A stretch of 46,082 nt of DNA from contig JASMMD010000007.1 of assembly GCA_030748335.1 (NCBI GenBank), forward strand, positions 1 to 46,082, written 5' to 3'. Positions 2,688 through 46,082 of the stretch are shown here, in pieces. The first letter of the stretch is position 1. Each line of letters starts with the position of its first letter. Origin of the DNA: Candidatus Thalassarchaeum sp. (GTDB lineage: Archaea; Thermoplasmatota; Poseidoniia; Poseidoniales; Thalassarchaeaceae). A program made the translations under genes and the position numbers. Under the pieces are notes generated by a model that saw only the letters and a list, made by a program, of their open reading frames with translations, did no database searches and had not been told where the DNA came from.

Positions 2688-2762
2688 GCGTCCCCCACGG
2701 GGTCGCTACCAATAAACTACGGTAGAGGCTAAGTCATGCACCCCGTGGCAATATCGAGCAGG

Positions 2763-3554
2763 ATGTCCAGAGTCGTATTGAAGTTAGGCGGTGGACTAAT
2801 CACCGACAAGTCTCGATACCGACATGTCAGAACGGACAGAATTGATGCCGTGTCGAGTGTGGTCCGAGAATTGAGGGACTCTGGTCAGTCAGTGGTTTTG
2901 GTCCACGGTGCTGGTTCTTTCGGACACCTCGAGGCCCGGAAGTGGGGGCTGGCGGACGGTATAGACGACGAGTCGCATGAATCCCAGATTCGAGCCATAT
3001 CGAGGGTTCGCGCAGACATGGATGACCTGAACAGGGCTGTTATCGAATCGCTGAGTCGTGCCGGGGTCGATTGTGAAACATTGCCACCGAGGGACTGGGC
3101 CATCGGCGTGGGTACGGAATTTGAAGGCGATCTAGGTGGATTCGTTCGAGATCCTGACGAGCCAATCCCGGTCACCTTCGGGGATGTAGTGGACACATCT
3201 GACGGCTCCAAATTCGGGATACTTTCGGGAGATCACATCATGGTTCGACTGGGGTGCGAGATGCCCGATGTCACTGCATGTGCTTTCTTGTTGGGAGATG
3301 TTGATGGCCTGATGGACAAACCCCCTGGAGAGTTAGATTCCACACTATTACGAACGTGGAGTTCCGAACAGGGTTTCTCGGGATCTCATGACTTAGACCA
3401 TGATGTCACCGGCGGGATTCTATTGAAGGCAGGCTGTGCCTCAGAGATTGCCAGATGTGTCGAGCAGGTGTGGCTCCTCAACGGAGCTGTACCGAGGAGG
3501 GTCCTAGGTGTGGTGTCCCACAGTGACGTCGTCGGCACTAGGATACTGCACTGA
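2763..3554 (+). CDS. Isopentenyl phosphate kinase
   Basis: IPK phosphorylates isopentenyl phosphate to isopentenyl diphosphate, the ATP-dependent step of the archaeal mevalonate route. It is an amino-acid-kinase fold protein. From the start chosen here the N-terminus reads MSRVVLKLGGGLIT, the family's nucleotide-binding opening. VHGAGSFGH follows, with the catalytic His at residue 55. GILSGDHI and LLGDVDGL then form the conserved second half, and DVTGGI lies near the end. A possible start at 2736 would add nine residues. I prefer 2763 because the TATA-like AATAAACTA (2711-2719) would start transcription near 2740. The next gene downstream (IPP isomerase/GGPP synthase) uses the product. Confidence 0.93.
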   Translation: MSRVVLKLGGGLITDKSRYRHVRTDRIDAVSSVVRELRDSGQSVVLVHGAGSFGHLEARKWGLADGIDDESHESQIRAISRVRADMDDLNRAVIESLSRAGVDCETLPPRDWAIGVGTEFEGDLGGFVRDPDEPIPVTFGDVVDTSDGSKFGILSGDHIMVRLGCEMPDVTACAFLLGDVDGLMDKPPGELDSTLLRTWSSEQGFSGSHDLDHDVTGGILLKAGCASEIARCVEQVWLLNGAVPRRVLGVVSHSDVVGTRILH

Positions 3555-3590
3555 CTGGTTACCGCGTCTGTGCACGAGCGTTGCATTCCG

Positions 3591-3622: not shown

Positions 3623-5308
3623 ATGGCTGCGCAGGTAAAACCCGACGTCCTAGATGGCCATGACAGGTCGCAATCGGATTTCATGTCTGAGAATTGCATC
3701 CTAGTCAATGCCGATGACCATGCCATTGGCTCTGCGAGTAAGATGGAATGCCACAGTGGTGAGGGATTAAGGCATAGGGCATTCAGTGTCCTACTCTTTG
3801 ATACAAATGATAGGCTGCTATTGCAGAGAAGGTCGCTTGATAAGATCACATTTCCTGGAGTTTGGGCCAATTCATGTTGCAGTCACCCCCTGGATATTGA
3901 AGGAGAGAATGGAGATGCAGTTGCTGGTGTGATATCCGCGGCGAAGAGAAAATTGGATCAGGAACTCGGAATACCTCTTAGCGTAACATCAGAGTGGGAT
4001 TTCATACACATCGGTTCATTTCAGTATAGGTGTAGGTGGGATGAAAATTGGGTAGAACACGAAATTGACCATGTGTTGGTAGTCAAGGCTGACGTGGAAG
4101 TCGCTCCGAATCCAAACGAAATTTCCGATGTTAAATGGGTAGGGTTGGAGTTGCTAGATCAAATCATGGATGGGCAAGTATCAGATGATATGGTCATAGC
4201 GCCTTGGTTCAGAGCGATCCATAATCTCTACATTATGGAAAATTTTGATGAAACATTGGAATGCTCAGACAAAATAGCAAAAAACTGCTCGGTGGGGGAA
4301 CTTCGAATGGAACTAAACACTCCAGGTCAGTCACTTTTGGACGCGCTGAGCAGCCATCGTGATATTGTCGAGGAGGTCATCATGAGCAGCCTAGGCAAAA
4401 TGGAGCAAGAGAGGTTGCACGGTGCTATGACTCATCTTTTCGCAGGAGGAGGGAAGAGGCTCAGAGCGATACTGCCTCGCTTAGTCGGTGATGCTGTAGG
4501 TGAGGGGCATGATGGGCACTACACCCTTGGTGCCTGTATTGAGATAATCCACAACTTCACACTAGTTCACGACGATATCATGGACCAGGACCCCATTCGT
4601 AGAGGATTGGAAGCGGTCCACGTAGCATATGACGATGCGACTGCGATAAACGCTGGCGATGCTATGCTGGCCGTTGGTTTTGAGATCTTGGCAGAGACCC
4701 CGCACATCGAGCACGAGAGTCTAGCATTCCTAGTCAAGTCGATTGGAGAGATGGTGCGGAGAGTGGCCGAGGGCCAGATGGTTGACATTGAGTTTGAGAA
4801 TCGGGATGAAGTGAGTGAAGAGGATTACATCGCGATGATTGCGGGCAAGACTTCAGCTATGTTTGAGACCTGTGCTATGACCGGGGCCAAGCTAGCAGGC
4901 GCAGATGACTCGGTAGTCGAGAACATGGCCAATTGGGGGATGAATCTCGGTTTATGTTTCCAGATGATGGATGATCTAATCGACATTACTGGAGACACTG
5001 AGACACTTGGTAAGCCGGCTGGCTCGGACATCGTTCAGGGCAAGAGGACCCTGATAGCTATCCACGCGACGAGCAACGATCTAGAGTTGCCGATGTTTTC
5101 CAAGGTATTCGGATCGGGAGATTGTAGTGAGGAGGAACTTTCCATGGCTGTTGAGGAGTTGCGATCGAGCGGTTCAATCGATTACGCTAAACAGAGGGCT
5201 ATGCATCACCACTCCATAGCTCATGCTTGCCTAGACAAGTTGGGAGAAGGACCAGCAGTAGACGTTCTAAGGGAGTTGACGGACTTCCAGTTGATTCGTA
5301 TCAACTAA
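3623..5308 (+). CDS. Fused type I IPP isomerase / geranylgeranyl diphosphate synthase
   Basis: One 561-residue frame carries two enzymes. Residues about 20-215 are a type I (Nudix-fold) isopentenyl diphosphate isomerase. It has HRAFSVLLFD, QRRSLDKITFPGVWANSCCSHP (catalytic Cys86) and WVEHEIDHVL with the active-site glutamates. Residues about 235-561 are a trans-prenyl synthase. It has GGGKRLRA (275-282), a first Asp-rich motif DDIMD (317-321), a second DDLID (450-454) and GKPAGSDIVQGKRT. Phe sits five residues before the first Asp motif, as in archaeal C20 synthases. The fusion would convert IPP to DMAPP and then to GGPP for ether lipids. The isomerase half and linker are visibly AT-richer than the synthase half. 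IPK lies just upstream on the same strand. Confidence 0.93.
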   Translation: MAAQVKPDVLDGHDRSQSDFMSENCILVNADDHAIGSASKMECHSGEGLRHRAFSVLLFDTNDRLLLQRRSLDKITFPGVWANSCCSHPLDIEGENGDAVAGVISAAKRKLDQELGIPLSVTSEWDFIHIGSFQYRCRWDENWVEHEIDHVLVVKADVEVAPNPNEISDVKWVGLELLDQIMDGQVSDDMVIAPWFRAIHNLYIMENFDETLECSDKIAKNCSVGELRMELNTPGQSLLDALSSHRDIVEEVIMSSLGKMEQERLHGAMTHLFAGGGKRLRAILPRLVGDAVGEGHDGHYTLGACIEIIHNFTLVHDDIMDQDPIRRGLEAVHVAYDDATAINAGDAMLAVGFEILAETPHIEHESLAFLVKSIGEMVRRVAEGQMVDIEFENRDEVSEEDYIAMIAGKTSAMFETCAMTGAKLAGADDSVVENMANWGMNLGLCFQMMDDLIDITGDTETLGKPAGSDIVQGKRTLIAIHATSNDLELPMFSKVFGSGDCSEEELSMAVEELRSSGSIDYAKQRAMHHHSIAHACLDKLGEGPAVDVLRELTDFQLIRIN

Positions 5309-7516
5309 TCAATCAGTGTAGTGGGCCTCGCCAGGTATCTCCTGCTTCAAGCCCTTGCGCTCCCTAATCTCTGCCGTGACTTTTCCGAACAGGCTAGGGG
5401 GAAGGTGGATGTAACCAGCATTCTCCGTGTTCCAAACGGCTCGACCTTGTGTAGCGGCCCTGATATCGTTCGAGAATCCAAATGATTCGGCTACGGGCAT
5501 AGTGCCAATTACACTGGCTGTGTTTCCATCGACTGGCATGTCCTCGATGACTCCCCTTCTCGTCGTTACTTCCCTTGTTACGCCGCCAATCACGTCATTG
5601 GGCGCGTCTATCCGAATCTTCTGTATCGGTTCAAATATTACTGACTTGGATCGCAACAGCGCTCCCTTGATGGCATTGCGAACAGCTGGTATCGTCTGCG
5701 CGGGGCCCCTGTGAATCGCGTCTTCGTGTAACTTCGCATCCACCAGACGGACCATGACTCCCATCAGCGGCTCTTCGGCCACCGGACCCTTCTTGCAGAC
5801 GTCGTTGAAGCCCTCAATTATCAATTCACGAGTCTCGTGCAGATTTTGTATTCCTTTCGTGTCGTTCACCATGACGTTGGTTCCGTTGATAGCATAGATT
5901 TTCCTCATCAGATCCTTATCCATGCCGAACTCAGAGAACCTATCTCCGATCTCCTTGGCGTCTTTGAGCCTGACTGGACCGTCTCCGAATGTACCTTCAC
6001 GAAGCGCGTTGGTCACGTCATCTGGCAACGGCTCAGTCTCAATATAGAATCTGTTGTGTCGATTGGGTGACTTGCCCTCAAATGGGCGCCCATTGTTATC
6101 AGAAGAGATTGATTCCCGATAGACTACGATGGGCTCGCTTACTGTGACCTTGATGCCCTGCTCTTCCTCCAGCCTGTAAACTGTAATCTCCAAGTGTAAT
6201 TCGCCCATACCAGCCAGTAGAGCCTCGCCCGTCTCCTGGTTCGTAAAGACCTGTAACGAGGCGTCCGCCTTACCTAGAGTTCTCAGAGCATCGATGAACT
6301 TCGGTAGGTCCTTCATCGACTTGGGCTCAACTGCCACTGTCACAACAGGTTCGGAGTAGTGACGTATCGCTTCGAACGGTGTTGAGTCCTCATCGCGAGT
6401 GATCGTGACACCAGCAGCTGCACTGCGCACTCCCGTGAGTGCCACAATGTTGCCCGAGGATACCTCAGGCACCTGTATGCGGTCACTGCCGACCATCATA
6501 CTCACCTGCTGTACCCTCTCCGGTTTGGCAGCACCTAATGCCCATACCGACTCCCCGTGCTTGATCGTGCCAGAGTATATCCTGCCGACAGCCACCTCGC
6601 CCGCATGTGGGTCCATCCATATCTTGGTAATCATCAGTGAAAGTGGTCCGTTGGCGTCGCAACCTAACATAGAGGTGCCAGTTTCAGACTCGAGATCCCC
6701 CTGCCAGATGTTGGGTATTCTGTACTTCTGAGCGACCATGGGCGAAGGAAGCTCTTCCACTGCCATATCAAGGAGAACCTCATGAACTGGCGCCTTCTTT
6801 GCGAGCTCCTTCTGTTGTTCATTGTGACAGTACTCGAAGATTTGAGTGAAGTTGACTCCTGACTTCTGCATGTAGGGTACTGTAATTCCCCAATTATGGT
6901 ACGCAGACCCGAATGCAACAGTTCCATCCGTGACACTGACTTGCCAGTCTTTGCGATGCTCCTCTGGAGCGAATTGCCGAATCAGAGTATTGACTCTGGT
7001 GATCTGCTGTTCGAATCTGCCCATCATGTCTTCTGGAGTGACTTGCAACTCGTTGATTAGTCGGTCGACCTTGTTGATGAACAGTACAGGCTTCACCTTC
7101 TCCTTGAGTGCCTGCCTAACTACTGTTTCAGTCTGAGGCATGGCCCCTTCGACAGCACAAGTCAGAATGATACATCCATCTACAGCGCGCATCGCTCTTG
7201 TGACGTCTCCGCCGAAGTCAACGTGACCGGGTGTGTCAATGAGGTTGATTAGATAATCATCACCACCTACACTGTGCACCATTGAGGCGCTCGCAGCGTT
7301 GATTGTGATGCCTCTGGCGCTCTCCTGGTCGTCGAAGTCGAGGACTCGAGACTTACCGGCTAGGTCCTCCGACATCATTCCCGCGCCGGCAATCAGATTG
7401 TCCGAGAGTGTGGTCTTCCCGTGGTCTATATGAGCTGCAATTGCGAGGTTGCGTATCCTATCCCGGTCATGCATGACCTCGGTTGCGCGATTGATGTTGT
7501 CTTCCTTACGACCCAT
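5309..7516 (-). CDS. fusA: Translation elongation factor 2 (aEF-2)
   Basis: EF-2 is the GTPase that translocates the ribosome. The 735 residues match the family. G1 is AHIDHGKTTL (from residue 28), followed by RGITI, DTPGHVDF and NKVDR. Domain IV contains DAIHRGPAQ, whose His602 is the site of diphthamide. An upstream in-frame ATG at 7657 would overlap rps7. I prefer 7516 because a TATA-like CTTTATGAA (7554-7562, minus strand) lies between them and GAGGT sits six bases before this ATG. The gene is third in an rps12-rps7-EF-2 run but has its own promoter. EF-1 alpha and S10, often next in archaea, are absent here. Dph6, encoded at 16.9-17.7 kb, would complete the diphthamide. Confidence 0.97.
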   Translation of the reverse strand: MGRKEDNINRATEVMHDRDRIRNLAIAAHIDHGKTTLSDNLIAGAGMMSEDLAGKSRVLDFDDQESARGITINAASASMVHSVGGDDYLINLIDTPGHVDFGGDVTRAMRAVDGCIILTCAVEGAMPQTETVVRQALKEKVKPVLFINKVDRLINELQVTPEDMMGRFEQQITRVNTLIRQFAPEEHRKDWQVSVTDGTVAFGSAYHNWGITVPYMQKSGVNFTQIFEYCHNEQQKELAKKAPVHEVLLDMAVEELPSPMVAQKYRIPNIWQGDLESETGTSMLGCDANGPLSLMITKIWMDPHAGEVAVGRIYSGTIKHGESVWALGAAKPERVQQVSMMVGSDRIQVPEVSSGNIVALTGVRSAAAGVTITRDEDSTPFEAIRHYSEPVVTVAVEPKSMKDLPKFIDALRTLGKADASLQVFTNQETGEALLAGMGELHLEITVYRLEEEQGIKVTVSEPIVVYRESISSDNNGRPFEGKSPNRHNRFYIETEPLPDDVTNALREGTFGDGPVRLKDAKEIGDRFSEFGMDKDLMRKIYAINGTNVMVNDTKGIQNLHETRELIIEGFNDVCKKGPVAEEPLMGVMVRLVDAKLHEDAIHRGPAQTIPAVRNAIKGALLRSKSVIFEPIQKIRIDAPNDVIGGVTREVTTRRGVIEDMPVDGNTASVIGTMPVAESFGFSNDIRAATQGRAVWNTENAGYIHLPPSLFGKVTAEIRERKGLKQEIPGEAHYTD

Positions 7517-7553
7517 GACTAGACCTCTGGATGGTGCGGCGACCTGACAACGG

Positions 7554-7562
7554 TTCATAAAG
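7554..7562 (-). promoter_or_regulatory. TATA box for EF-2
   Basis: CTTTATGAA on the minus strand is centred 42 bases before the EF-2 ATG at 7516. It predicts a leader of about 15 bases containing a GAGGT ribosome-binding site, and it excludes the longer frame start at 7657. Confidence 0.45.
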
Positions 7563-7619
7563 CCGATTGCAGAGCCGACTCGGTGGACTCTCAGTAGCCC
7601 TGTTTGTAGGAGTTCGGAA

Positions 7620-8228
7620 TCATCGCGCGGATGCAGCGATCCTCTCGATCTCCTCACGCTTGCCGACCGAGTATGAGGCTACGTCACCATCGGCCGCCTT
7701 GGAGAGTTCCGACACTATGCCCTCGGTCAAGGTACGTCGACTCTTGGCAGTAGCGGAAGCGGCGCCGATTGCTATGTTGCGCAAGGCTACGTCCAACCTA
7801 CGACTGGGCGAAGAATCTACTGCCTTCGGTTGACTGACAGCGCCCACCTTGATGCGAGTAATCTCCTCGCAAGGAGCAGCTTCGACTATTGCATCTATGA
7901 ACTTCTGTAGAGGGTTTTCTCCACTGGTTGATGCTATCCTGTCCAAGGCCTCTTCGTAAGCCTTGGCGCAGTGCTGTTTCTTCCCAGAGAACTTACCAGT
8001 TCGCATTAGATTGTTAATGAAGCGCTCGATAACAGAGAGCTTTGATTTTCCGAACCATGCGTTGGCATGCCTACCTCCCGAATGAGGAGTTCCTATCGTT
8101 GTGAGGTTGATGTAGGGGGCCAAGCCGGGATCGTCGCAGATAACTTCTGAGGCGTCCCACTTACCGAACACCATAGTCCCAATGCCAGCAATCGGTGCCT
8201 CTTGCTCTGCTTGTGCTTCCTCGGACAT
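7620..8228 (-). CDS. rps7: 30S ribosomal protein S7
   Basis: S7 nucleates assembly of the 30S head and contacts tRNA in the E site. The 202 residues match the archaeal form, with an acidic N-terminal extension. Recognisable stretches are IERFINNLMRTGKFSGKK, FIDAIVEAAPCEEITRIKVG, RRLDVALRNIAIGA and the C-terminal SYSVGKREEIERIA. The start ATG lies nine bases after the stop of rps12, so the two are cotranscribed. EF-2 follows after about 100 bases. The order S12-S7-EF-2 is the conserved archaeal version of the bacterial str operon. Confidence 0.97.
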   Translation of the reverse strand: MSEEAQAEQEAPIAGIGTMVFGKWDASEVICDDPGLAPYINLTTIGTPHSGGRHANAWFGKSKLSVIERFINNLMRTGKFSGKKQHCAKAYEEALDRIASTSGENPLQKFIDAIVEAAPCEEITRIKVGAVSQPKAVDSSPSRRLDVALRNIAIGAASATAKSRRTLTEGIVSELSKAADGDVASYSVGKREEIERIAASAR

Positions 8229-22099: not shown

Positions 22100-22123
22100 G
22101 GGTTGATGGGTCGAAACAGGTCG

Positions 22124-23110
22124 ATGCAAGAGCCTCTGGGGACGCTAGTGGGGCTTCTGGCGGACTCTATTGGCATCGCTGATGTCAGCCTGAAACTACT
22201 CATCTGCGCCCTCGGGGCGATAGGTCTGGGAATAGGGTTTCATCTCAGAGAGAGGTGGTTCGCACCCTACTCGTCAGCGTTCGGCTGGGTATTACTGGGA
22301 CTGTTCCTGTACCTACAGTCGCCGCACTACGTCGAGATATCGGACCCTATCCTCGTCCTGATGACTGCATCCGCGCTCCCTGTGGGTATAGCGCTAGGTG
22401 TTTGGGAGGTGAGGAACTGGGAGGATATTCCCGAGGCACTGGTATGGTTCAGAGGGTGTGTCGTGTGGGCAGTCGTTCCCTACTACGTTGTGTACAGCAT
22501 TCCATTACTGAACATGGCAGTGGTTCACGCGACGGCGTGGAACACCGAGATCATGCTGGAGTTCGCAGGTCTAGGGGGCTACCAAATGGGGCCTATGATG
22601 GTGGACTTGTTGCATGGAGGAGCTGTTCCGGTGTCGGAGTGGCAAGGGAACCGATGGATTATGGCCGAGCCCCTGGGGGAGAACGGCTTCTTTGTCCCAC
22701 TGGAGCACTCTGATGGTACGGTCGTCAGTGTTAGCTTCATCCTCGCCTGCTCGGGGCTTCAGTCGATGATAGTGTTCGTAGGAGCGATAGTGGCACTCGG
22801 ACGCGTGGATTGGGGTCGTAGGCTGAGGGCCCTCATGATTGCGATTCCGACCATCCACGTCCTCAACGTGTTCAGGAACGCCGGCATAGTGTGGCTGACT
22901 GACAACTACACCGACTGGACATTTCTCGGTATGGGGATGTTCGAGTTCGCCCACAGTTACGCAGCGAAGTTCGCAAGTCTGTTCGCCATGTTCCTGATGG
23001 CGTTGGCTCTGTTCGACCTTTTACCCGAGTTACATGCCAACATCATGCGGATGCTCCGTCCAGTGATGAAATCACTGGGATTGGAGTCCACAGAACGGAG
23101 TTCAACGTGA
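22124..23110 (+). CDS. artA: Archaeosortase (ArtA type)
   Basis: Archaeosortases are integral membrane transpeptidases that remove PGF-CTERM tails and help attach surface proteins to lipid. The 328 residues carry many hydrophobic helices. The catalytic triad positions are recognisable: Cys209 in ILACSGLQSM, Arg251 in VLNVFRNAGI and His277 in FEFAHSYAAKF. ACSGLQS is close to the ACTGIQS of ArtA. In-frame starts exist at 22103 (TTG) and 22106. I prefer 22124 because of the TATA box at 22091-22099. A PGF-tailed protein is encoded at the right end of the window. Its last nine bases overlap the convergent helicase gene. Confidence 0.88.
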   Translation: MQEPLGTLVGLLADSIGIADVSLKLLICALGAIGLGIGFHLRERWFAPYSSAFGWVLLGLFLYLQSPHYVEISDPILVLMTASALPVGIALGVWEVRNWEDIPEALVWFRGCVVWAVVPYYVVYSIPLLNMAVVHATAWNTEIMLEFAGLGGYQMGPMMVDLLHGGAVPVSEWQGNRWIMAEPLGENGFFVPLEHSDGTVVSVSFILACSGLQSMIVFVGAIVALGRVDWGRRLRALMIAIPTIHVLNVFRNAGIVWLTDNYTDWTFLGMGMFEFAHSYAAKFASLFAMFLMALALFDLLPELHANIMRMLRPVMKSLGLESTERSST

Positions 23111-42802: not shown

Positions 42803-45800
42803 TCAGTCGTCCTTACGGCGGCCCAGTAGGGCAGCGCCGAGTAGTGCGATTGCAGCGAACAGAGACGGGAAGCCCGGTACAGCGTTCGTCCATCCGAGGT
42901 TGGTCTCCTCTGCTGGTTCGTAGAGAGGGCCGTCAGTGTTGTCGGTGTCGCTAGCATCACAGATGCCGTCGCCGTCGTAGTCAGAAGGTACTGCATCTGG
43001 GTCTAGGCTGTCAGAACCGCACTCGTCCTCGCGCGCATCGGACTCGCCATCGCCGTCATCATCGTTGTCAGCGTTGTCACCAGTGCCGTCGCCGTCGGTG
43101 TCGTCCCACTCGGCCGGATCGGTCGGGAAGGCGTCGTCAACGTCGGCGGTACCGTCGTTGTCGTCATCGCCGTCGGCATTGTCGCCCAGTCCGTCGCCAT
43201 CGAGGTCGTGATCCTCAGCCGCGTTGAGCGGGAAGGCATCATCAACGTCGGCGGTGCCATCACCGTCGTCGTCGGTGTCGCTGTTGTCTCCGATTCCGTC
43301 ACCATCACTGTCGACCCACTCGGACGAATCCGCTGGGAAGACGTCGATACCGTCGTTGACGCCGTCGCCGTCGTCGTCGGCGTCCGAATTGTCGCCCTGA
43401 CCGTCGCCGTCCATGTCATTCCACTCGCTGGAATCCTCTGGGAAGGCGTCGTCAGCGTCGTCGTAGCCATCGTTGTCATCGTCGTCGTCGGCGTTGTTGC
43501 CGATGCCGTCGTTGTCATCGTCAGCCCACTCCGAGGAGTCAAGCGGGAACGGATCAGCCACGTCGGCGACTCCGTCGCCGTCGTCGTCTGGATCTACGTT
43601 GTTACCGAGGCCATCGCCATCGGTGTCGTCCCACTCGCTCGGGTTGAACGGGAATGCGTCGTCAGCGTCGTCGACACCGTCAGCGTCGTCATCCGTGTCA
43701 GCGTTGTCGCCGATTCCGTCGCCATCGAAGTCTTCGGTCTCTGTCGCATCGTTCGGGAACGTGTCCTGACCGTCGTTGACGCCGTCGTTGTCGTCGTCGG
43801 TGTCCTCGTTGTCGCCGATTCCGTCGCCGTCGTTGTCATTGACCTCGCTCGAGTCATACGGGAAGGCGTCGACATCATCGTCCCATCCGTCGTTGTCATC
43901 GTCAGCATCCATTATGTCGCATACATGGTCGCCATCGTAGTCATCCGGTGTGGAGTTGGCCACTAGAGAGTCCGATCCGCAGGTAGCTTCGTCAGAGTCA
44001 GACCAGGAGTCGCCGTCGTCATCGTCGTCTATCGAGTATGCAGACGGATCGCAGGCCGAGCCGTTGAGCATCGTCGTGCCCAAGTTGTCCGACATGCCAT
44101 CGCCATCAGTGTCTAGGCCGACGCATGGGTCCAACGGATCCAAGTCGTCACCGTCGAGAGTACCATCGTTGTCGTCGTCCGGATCAAGGTTGGTGATGCC
44201 AGACGGTACCGGGATGTCTACGTCGTCTATCCAAGCCGTGTCGGCGTTGCCGTTGACGCTGCTGTCCTTCCAGTACACCCACGTGTAGGTGTGGTATCCA
44301 GAGACCACGTTGAACGTGTACGTCCCTGAAGTGAGGCCGGACCAGCGTGCGGTGTATCCTGATGTTCTCAGGCAGCCAGCAGAATTGTCGATGCAGAACA
44401 CTAGGTAGTCCCAGCCGCCTTCAGACGAGACATCGTAGTCGAACGATCCTGTGCCGTTAACCGCGTTGACCACTATCTCCAGCTTCGAATGCTGGTTGTG
44501 TACAATCGAGCCGGCCTGTGCGGAGTACATCCCACCTAGGTTCGCCGTGGAGCTGACTATCGACCATGGCGCGTCGCCGCTCGTAGCCCATCCGCCACCA
44601 AGCGAGCCGGACTCGAAGTCGCCGCTGAACGGAGGCGGTCCGGTGTAGTCGGCTATGCCGTCGCCGTCGGTGTCGATCCATGCGCTTCCGTCATTCGGGA
44701 ACGGGTCCTCGTCATCAGGCACGTTGTCGCCGTCGTCGTCTGGGTCAGCGTTGTCGCCCACTCCGTCGCCGTCGAGGTCAGACCACTCAGTCGGGTCGTT
44801 CGGGAACGCATCCTGCGAGTCGGTGACGTTGTCGTTGTCGTCGTCAGTGTCCTCGTTGTCGCCGATACCGTCCTGGTCATTGTCGGTCTGCTCGTCCGGG
44901 TTCAGCGGGAACTCGTCATTCCAGTCGTAGGTGCCGTCGTTGTCGTCGTCGGTGTCCTGCACGTCGCAGTAACCGTCGCCGTCCGAGTCAGTGTTCTCAT
45001 TGGCATCGTACGGGCAATCGTCGACTGCGTCGTCATAGCCGTCGTTGTCGTCGTCCATATCCTCGTCGAGGCCGTCAGAGGTCACCACCACGTTGTCGAT
45101 GTAGATCGCCTCAGAACCAGAGTTCGAAGCGAACTGCACGGCAATGCTGCCTGCACCGGAGACATCTGCGGAGATGGTCGTCCACACGCCCTCCATTGCG
45201 GAGAAGTCAAGATCGATGTCGTATCCATTGGTGTCTAGCAGGTACGTGCTGCCTGTTGCGGTTTCATAGCTCACGGTGATGTAGTCGGATGTCTCCCATC
45301 CAGTGCTCTGGATGAAGATGTCCATGCTGATTGTGTCTGCGTCAGAGACGACATCGAAGACCAATTGTGCGATACCATCGGTGTCGGACATCTGGTAGCC
45401 CTGCGAACCGTCGGTGAAGGAACCAACAGTGCTGGCATAGTCAGTGACTCCGAAGTAGTCGCCGTCAGTCAGGCCGACTCCTCCAGTGCTGGTGTACGAA
45501 GCGCTGTATCCGAGATCTGATCCGGTCACGTAGGCTGTGAAGCCCATCATGTTCAGGCCGTACGGGTTCGCGTCCTGCGACCACGTGTAGGTACCTGGCT
45601 CCGTCCAATCATTCCAACCGGTGTAACCGTGCGCACTGGACCAACTGGTGTAGGTCAAGCCGCTCGGGATTGATATCAGAAGGTGTCCAGACGGACCTGT
45701 CAGTGTAGCCGCGTTGTACGAGTATGTGTACGAGGTGGTTGTCCATGGCATCAGGGTCTCGCCCTCGTTGAGGGTGAAACTGCAAGTGAAGGAGGTCGAG

Positions 45801-46082
45801 ATGGTGCCACCAGTCGTGCAAGGCGTCGTGCTCGCGTCGTAGTTGACATCAGACTCGCCGTCGTTGTTGGCCAGCGAGTGGTTCGTCGTCGAGTCACCTG
45901 TATCGGTGTACTGAGAGCCGGTGGAGGCTGACTCGAACGAAGCAGAAGCCACTGTGACTCCGCAACCAATCGAAGTGAACGAGTCAGGCATTCCGTCGCC
46001 ATCGAAGTCAGCGTTCGCGCAGTTGTTCAGTGGGAACGGATCGCTGGTGTCGGGTGTACCGTCGCCGTCGTCGTCGGTGTCG
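42803..46082 (-). CDS. Large secreted thrombospondin type 3 repeat protein with PGF-CTERM tail (5' partial)
   Basis: At least 1,093 residues are visible; the N-terminus is beyond the right edge, so the start is not seen. The frame stays open through TSP3-type repeats to base 46082. From the visible N-terminal side: a TSP3 stretch, an unknown beta-rich domain (about 45060-45990), a TSP3 block, a lectin/MAM-like domain starting [14 protein letters not shown] (about 44180-44640), further TSP3 units including eight 35-residue units, and a C-terminal PGF tail. Asp-rich loops (DxDGDGxxDN) should bind calcium. It is probably a cell-surface protein processed by the archaeosortase encoded at 22.1 kb; that link is inferred. 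Confidence 0.93.
42806..42880 (-). other. PGF-CTERM sorting signal
   Basis: The last 25 residues are [25 protein letters not shown] without interruption. They form a Pro-Gly-Phe motif, a hydrophobic helix and a basic end. This is the tripartite tail recognised by archaeosortase A in halophiles. Confidence 0.85.
43041..43880 (-). repeat. Tandem 105-base coding repeats (eight TSP3 units)
   Basis: Eight consecutive 35-residue units share the pattern DxxDAFPxDxxExxDxDGDGxGDNxDxDDDxDGxx. They diverge from each other but keep exact 105-base length. Boundaries are approximate. The opposite strand is rich in GTC codons and carries long open frames, an effect of the GAC repeats. Confidence 0.85.
44640..45060 (-). 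repeat. Second TSP3 repeat block
   Basis: About four more Asp-rich units, including [19 protein letters not shown] with a Cys pair and two [15 protein letters not shown]-type units. They precede the FESG lectin-like domain. Spacing is less regular than in the main block. Confidence 0.75.

What the first reader, a model, noticed from the sequence alone, without database searches (positions are those of the whole stretch)
3623..5308. IPP isomerase and GGPP synthase fused in one polypeptide
Both enzymes look intact, with catalytic Cys86 in the isomerase and DDIMD/DDLID in the synthase. Fusion would channel DMAPP made from IPP straight to chain elongation. Many archaea use the unrelated type II isomerase, encoded separately. 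Whether this exact fusion has been described I cannot tell from here.
Basis: partly seen in the sequence, partly recalled or inferred. Interest (0 to 1): 0.62.

Follow-up and report, generated by a model that had tools for sequence, protein, structure and literature searches.

The report
Two lipid-precursor enzymes in one protein
In the most common archaea of the sunlit ocean (Marine Group II), the enzyme that converts IPP to DMAPP is joined in one protein to the enzyme that builds C20 lipid chains from both; the join is real, nearly order-wide and appears undescribed, though it combines two well-known enzymes.

Summary
Confirmed. Window 3623-5308 (+) is one 561-codon open frame. Residues 1-212 are a type I IPP isomerase (TIGR02150 over cut-off); residues about 237-561 are an archaeal-type short-chain trans-prenyl synthase (PF00348), most likely a GGPP synthase. 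All key catalytic residues checked are intact and invariant in 76 distinct fused relatives. The window belongs to Ca. Poseidoniales (Marine Group II). The fusion occurs in every sampled genus of the order except two: one (g20) encodes separate genes, and in one (g19) the region is missing from the assembly. Genomes without it that I checked also lack the neighbouring, essential aEF-2 gene, so they have assembly gaps. In the sister order (probably Marine Group III) and in g20 the two genes are adjacent and mostly overlap by four bases (ATGA), which looks like the pre-fusion state. The fused isomerase is the only IPP isomerase found: type II isomerase is absent from 116 genomes of the order but present in 6 of 6 other Thermoplasmatota tested. 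Isopentenyl phosphate kinase lies directly upstream in 92 of 95 loci. A second, bacterial fusion of the same design sits on a plasmid. Channelling is unproven. No description was found in the papers searched.

The parts
2736..3554 (+). Isopentenyl phosphate kinase (IPK), makes the IPP used by the fused enzyme; co-directional and immediately upstream
   Evidence: NF040647 155.5 bits, cut-off 120; IPK upstream and co-directional in 92 of 95 fused loci
3623..5308 (+). Fused IPP isomerase (type I) - GGPP synthase, 561 aa (in-frame upstream starts at 3581 also possible)
   Evidence: predicted fold matches human IDI1 and archaeal GGPPS
3623..4258 (+). Type I IPP isomerase half (residues 1-212), eukaryote-like long form
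   Evidence: TIGR02150 over cut-off; best solved relative human IDI1, E 4e-46, versus E. coli Idi 5e-17
3878..3880 (+). Catalytic cysteine C86 (aligned with the CxHP cysteine of E. coli Idi)
   Evidence: 76/76 fused proteins; alignment
4055..4063 (+). E145-x-E147, metal and catalytic glutamates of the isomerase
   Evidence: 76/76 fused proteins
4220..4342 (+). Linker, about residues 200-240; variable in length, in frame in all relatives, pLDDT dips to 61-62
4331..5305 (+). GGPP synthase half (residues 237-561)
   Evidence: PF00348 E 9e-65; best solved relative Geoglobus GGPP synthase 5jfq, E 2e-63
4571..4585 (+). First aspartate-rich motif DDIMD (317-321), with chain-length residue F312 five positions upstream
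   Evidence: D317, D318, D321 and F312 all 76/76
4970..4984 (+). Second aspartate-rich motif DDLID (450-454)
   Evidence: D450 and D451 76/76, D454 75/76
5309..7657 (-). Archaeal elongation factor aEF-2, convergent neighbour used as the presence control and tree marker
   Evidence: TIGR00490 1030 bits; convergent downstream in 63 of 73 loci tested

Best explanation
The gene encodes a bifunctional enzyme. The N-terminal type I isomerase turns part of the IPP supplied by the upstream IPK into DMAPP. The C-terminal trans-prenyl synthase condenses that DMAPP with three IPP into GGPP for archaeal membrane lipids. Fusion fixes a 1:1 dosage of the two activities and puts DMAPP production next to its consumer, at the only IPP isomerase found in the genome. 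It probably arose once in Poseidoniales, from a translationally coupled idi1-ggpps pair with a 4-base overlap, when a small indel removed the stop. Shown: the fusion, intact motifs, conservation, absence of IDI2, tandem overlapping pre-fusion state. Inferred: both activities, GGPP as product, flux benefit, single origin.
For: Families and motifs. Both half-folds match solved IDI1 and GGPPS: TM by target 0.88 for human IDI1 and 0.95 for Geoglobus GGPPS. Fusion across the order. IDI2 over cut-off in 0/116 genomes of the order, present in 6/6 other Thermoplasmatota, absent from 4 sister-order genomes tested. IPK directly upstream in 92/95 loci. HMG-CoA reductase present in all 5 genomes tested and GGGP synthase in 4 of 5, including this one. 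F312 at position -5 of the first motif is invariant; by established work on archaeal GGPP synthases a bulky residue there stops growth at C20. The genome's other prenyl synthase has Ala there and lies beside a geranylgeranyl-reductase-like and a UbiE-like methyltransferase gene, fitting a long-chain quinone enzyme. Tandem genes with ATGA or similar overlap in the sister order and in g20. Engineered assembly of Idi with CrtE raised carotenoids 5.7-fold (Kang 2019, in PMC7322351) and astaxanthin substantially (PMC9492657).
Against: No biochemical data. Lineage-specific NCBIfam GGPP synthase models score below their cut-offs (255 of 468, 243 of 500), so product length rests on F312 and the fold. 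Genus g20 does well without the fusion, so it is not essential to the pathway. Single origin is not statistically settled: the best concatenated gene tree and the MGII+MGIII EF-2 tree give one change (weak support, 43/27 and 76/78), while the larger EF-2 tree needs two and does not reject one clade (p 0.23).
Confidence: 0.85

Rival explanations
1. Tight kinetic channelling: DMAPP passes from isomerase to synthase without leaving the protein.
For: Consecutive steps on one chain; synthetic Idi-CrtE assembly raises flux.
Against: The linker is variable in sequence and length (75-96 residues between anchors), the predicted inter-domain arrangement is uncertain (pTM 0.60), and no tunnel or conserved interface was shown. 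IPP, needed in threefold amount, must come from solution anyway.
Confidence: 0.25
2. Neutral fusion: the two genes were translationally coupled and an indel joined them; the joined form is kept by drift, with no benefit over the overlapping pair.
For: Overlapping ATGA arrangement in the sister order and in g20 makes fusion a one-step event; g20 thrives unfused.
Against: In every sampled genus but g20 (and g19, where the region is missing) the fusion persists despite divergence to about 50% identity, and the same design arose in a bacterium.
Confidence: 0.3
3. One half is inactive: for instance the Nudix domain is a hydrolase or a regulatory relic.
For: The isomerase half evolves faster than the synthase half (62% against 87% identity to the nearest relative).
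Against: Cys, both Glu, the His and Trp positions of IDI1 are near-invariant. No other isomerase is present: the IDI-like paralogues of six relatives lack the CxHP motif.
Confidence: 0.04
4. Assembly artefact or frameshift error joining two genes.
For: Some genomes appear to have split or missing genes.
Against: 76 distinct fused sequences from independent assemblies. Missing cases also lack aEF-2, and the one split case outside g20 that I examined is an N gap.
Confidence: 0.01

Closest known systems
Type I IPP isomerase (IDI1; human IDI1, E. coli Idi)
   Same: Nudix fold, catalytic Cys, Glu and His ligands, family cut-off passed
   Different: Fused to a prenyl synthase; in an archaeal order that lacks IDI2. 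Closer to the human long form than to E. coli
Archaeal short-chain GGPP synthase (Geoglobus 5jfq, Pyrococcus 1wy0)
   Same: All-helical fold, both aspartate-rich motifs, Phe at position -5
   Different: Carries an N-terminal isomerase; 35-38% identical; below the cut-offs of lineage-specific NCBIfam models
Diatom IDI-squalene synthase fusion (PtIDISQS)
   Same: Natural fusion of IDI1 with a later isoprenoid enzyme
   Different: The partner is squalene synthase, not the enzyme that consumes DMAPP; eukaryotic (PMC12168105)
Bacterial plasmid IDI-polyprenyl synthase fusion WGP08112.1 (CP123774.1)
   Same: Same domain order, 543 aa, intact motifs
   Different: 27% identical, short bacterial-type isomerase and different linker, so probably convergent; annotated only as idi
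Engineered Idi-CrtE assemblies (RIAD-RIDD, PKS docking domains)
   Same: Same two enzymes brought together to raise GGPP-derived products
   Different: Man-made, non-covalent, in E. coli or yeast
Classical archaeal arrangement: IPK and GGPPS in one cluster with IDI2
   Same: IPK upstream of GGPPS on one strand, also seen in the Methanobrevibacter and ANME-2 loci fetched
   Different: Here type I replaces the unrelated type II isomerase and is fused; that IDI2 sits in those other clusters is from memory

Membership tests
Type I IPP isomerase (IDI1) | Match to TIGR02150 above curated cut-off | tested here: met
   156.2 bits, cut-off 105.8
Type I IPP isomerase (IDI1) | Catalytic Cys and Glu, His ligands, active-site Trp | tested here: met
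   C86, E145, E147, H51, H88 76/76; W195 near-invariant
Type I IPP isomerase (IDI1) | IPP-DMAPP isomerase activity | not testable with these tools
   needs assay
Short-chain trans-prenyl diphosphate synthase | PF00348 match and two aspartate-rich motifs | tested here: met
   218.9 bits, cut-off 27; D317, D318, D321, D450, D451 invariant
GGPP synthase (C20 product) | Bulky residue at position -5 of the first motif | tested here: met
   F312 76/76
NCBIfam equivalogs IdsA_Meth / GGPP_syn | Score above curated cut-off | tested here: not met
   255.3 of 468 and 243.4 of 500; hence not filed under these lineage-specific equivalogs
GGPP synthase (C20 product) | Product identity | not testable with these tools
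   needs assay
Type II IPP isomerase (IDI2) | TIGR02151 match in the order | tested here: not met
   0 of 116 over cut-off
IDI-squalene synthase fusion | Squalene synthase C-terminal domain | tested here: not met
   PF00348 is the only domain reported there
Channelling bifunctional enzyme | Intermediate not released to bulk | not testable with these tools
   needs kinetics

The most novel reading that the evidence does not exclude
A natural, order-wide bifunctional enzyme that makes GGPP from IPP alone with privileged transfer of DMAPP, as the only source of DMAPP in the dominant surface-ocean archaea. It evolved by one indel in a coupled gene pair after an IDI1 displaced the ancestral IDI2, and nature and metabolic engineers reached the same solution.
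Probability: 0.25. Interest if true: 0.62.

Novelty: new variant of a known kind. Interest (0 to 1): 0.45.

Why it matters
Marine Group II dominates surface-ocean archaea but is uncultured, and its membrane lipids are unknown (PMC8473941). This enzyme is the probable branch point for all its C20 lipid chains, so it gives a single expressible target to test how the group makes lipids and a marker shared by nearly the whole order. It is a natural version of an engineered Idi-CrtE assembly, and it comes with its apparent pre-fusion state still present in relatives, which makes the value of fusing successive enzymes directly testable.

Tried and rejected
Assembly error: rejected. L087, a 657-aa frame with GGPPS: only a long GC-rich open frame, not a fusion. 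Second IDI-like hits in six relatives: Nudix proteins without CxHP, not isomerases. IDI2 hits below cut-off in the order: short stretches of other barrel proteins. An AU test on EF-2 first rejected a single fused clade, but I had miscounted one outgroup row (f15) as fused; the corrected test does not reject it. The IDI-only tree is too poorly resolved to place the origin of the isomerase. Viral contigs: no relatives. Phages: no place covering 80% of the query.

Full report
What is there. The + strand frame ending at 5308 encodes a single protein of 561 codons from the ATG at 3623 (575 from a TTG at 3581) without an internal stop. Pfam finds a NUDIX domain at 50-180 and polyprenyl_synt at 263-512. 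NCBIfam calls the first half isopentenyl-diphosphate isomerase type I, over the curated cut-off. The closest solved structures are human IDI1 for residues 6-209 and an archaeal GGPP synthase, 5jfq, for 239-558. An AlphaFold model from 26 relatives (mean pLDDT 87.8, pTM 0.60) matches human IDI1 (TM by target 0.88) and Geoglobus GGPP synthase (0.95). The linker blocks around 211-220 and 231-240 fall to pLDDT 61-62, and the relative placement of the domains is not resolved.

Where it comes from. The window is a contig of a 1.16 Mb, 81% complete assembly. Its relatives are labelled Candidatus Poseidoniales, Thalassarchaeaceae and Marine Group II. Neighbours are isopentenyl phosphate kinase upstream on the same strand, a thiolase further upstream and archaeal EF-2 downstream, convergent. 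Among fused loci with enough flank, IPK lies upstream and co-directional in 92 of 95, and EF-2 is convergent downstream in 63 of 73.

How widespread. Of 194 genomes sampled over the order, 192 have a match (some only to the unfused prenyl synthase). Well over 100 listed places cover essentially the whole query in one open frame with no stop, and every sampled genus has it except g19 and g20. Five well-assembled genomes that lack it (G023, G015, G007, G066, G028) also lack EF-2, the essential neighbour, so the region is simply missing from the assembly. In g20 (four genomes) the two genes are separate but adjacent in the same neighbourhood, and all ten sister-order loci I examined have the same tandem. 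I take the sister order to be Marine Group III; it is given only as family f3 of the same class. In the twelve g20 and sister-order junctions inspected, the synthase start overlaps the isomerase stop by four bases (ATGA or TTGA) in nine, by a slightly longer overlap in two, and starts two bases after it in one. From such a state a 1-base insertion or 2-base deletion before the stop would join the frames.

Origin. The tree of isomerase plus synthase rooted on the sister order has the fused proteins as one clade apart from g20, with weak support (43/27). An EF-2 tree of the two orders agrees (76/78, one change). A larger EF-2 tree puts g20 inside family f2 (two changes) but does not reject the one-clade tree (p 0.23). 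One fusion after g20 split off is the simplest reading; fission in g20 or parallel fusions are not excluded. In f2 the linker keeps the ending of the sister-order isomerase (IHDMGDV compared with IHNMGEV) followed by sequence that could be the old start of the synthase (MLPGA...), as expected of a fusion scar (inference).

Active sites. In 76 distinct fused proteins C86, H51, S87, H88, W143, E145 and E147 of the isomerase and D317, D318, D321, D323, D450 and D451 of the synthase are invariant. F312, five residues before the first motif, is also invariant. From established work on archaeal GGPP synthases (Ohnuma and colleagues, from memory), a bulky residue at that position limits the product to C20. 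The other prenyl synthase of the genome (C21, L128 4487-5467) has Ala there (HTATLIHDDIYD) and sits beside a geranylgeranyl-reductase-like and a UbiE-like gene, so it is more likely the long-chain quinone enzyme (inference).

Replacement of IDI2. The family model of the type II isomerase passes its cut-off in none of 116 genomes of the order. It passes in 6 of 6 Thermoplasmatota outside the class, and in none of four sister-order genomes. A protein search with the isomerase half over the phylum gives strong matches only in this class, apart from a few genomes of two other families at about 43-45% identity over a shorter stretch. The published view is that archaea normally use IDI2 and that IDI1 occurs in Haloarchaea and Thaumarchaeota by transfer from bacteria (PMC3533463). 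So an IDI1, more like the human than the E. coli form, probably replaced IDI2 in the ancestor of this class. The donor was not determined.

Mechanism. IPK makes IPP, the isomerase half makes DMAPP from part of it, and the synthase half combines one DMAPP with three IPP. HMG-CoA reductase was found in all five genomes tested, and GGGP synthase, the consumer of GGPP, in four of five including this one. Fusion fixes dosage and proximity. Whether DMAPP is channelled is open. The enzyme pair is a plausible place to gain flux: tying Idi to CrtE with peptide tags raised carotenoids 5.7-fold in E. coli (reported in PMC7322351), and docking domains gave a clear astaxanthin increase with the same pair (PMC9492657).

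Comparison. Natural IDI fusions are known with squalene synthase in diatoms (PMC12168105). A search of plasmids turned up a second IDI-prenyl synthase fusion, WGP08112.1 on CP123774.1, with intact motifs but 27% identity and the short bacterial isomerase form, so probably independent. An Arthrobacter plasmid has idi and the synthase as overlapping neighbours, again the tandem state. No paper in the library describes the archaeal fusion, and the MGII genome papers opened mention GGGP synthase but not this. The library lacks many subscription papers, so absence there is not proof of novelty.

Verdict. Real, intact, conserved over nearly a whole order, apparently undescribed, with an informative pre-fusion state. 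The parts and the chemistry are known, so it is a new variant of a known kind.

Noticed in passing
L196 7989-9620 (CP123774.1, labelled Bacillus subtilis DK01 plasmid): Independent IDI-polyprenyl synthase fusion, annotated only as idi, in a terpene-like cluster with UbiA and FAD monooxygenase genes; the neighbouring genes make the species label doubtful.
   Followed up: partly
L122, L123, L145, L146 (genus g20): Only Poseidoniales genus found with separate idi1 and ggpps; overlap ATGA or TTGA. Its IPK is also unusually divergent (about 30% identity to the window IPK).
   Followed up: yes
L143, L144 (genus g22): IPK lies upstream of the fused gene but divergently oriented, about 430 bases away, unlike the usual co-directional IPK.
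   Followed up: no
L080 (NYYT01000056.1): Record titled Pedosphaera sp. carries the archaeal fused gene and neighbours; mislabelled MAG, with its IPK split between two frames.
   Followed up: no
window 22103-23110 (+) and 42803-45991 (-): Membrane protein resembling an archaeosortase, and a 1062-aa secreted protein with DxDxDG repeats ending in [24 protein letters not shown], like a PGF-CTERM sorting signal; possibly enzyme and substrate.
   Followed up: no
L128 4487-6955 (G000:C21): Second prenyl synthase (Ala at position -5) beside geranylgeranyl-reductase-like and UbiE-like genes, probably the quinone side-chain pathway.
   Followed up: partly
L198-L203: Six Thalassarchaeaceae relatives carry an extra IDI-like Nudix protein without the catalytic CxHP motif; function unknown.
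   Followed up: partly
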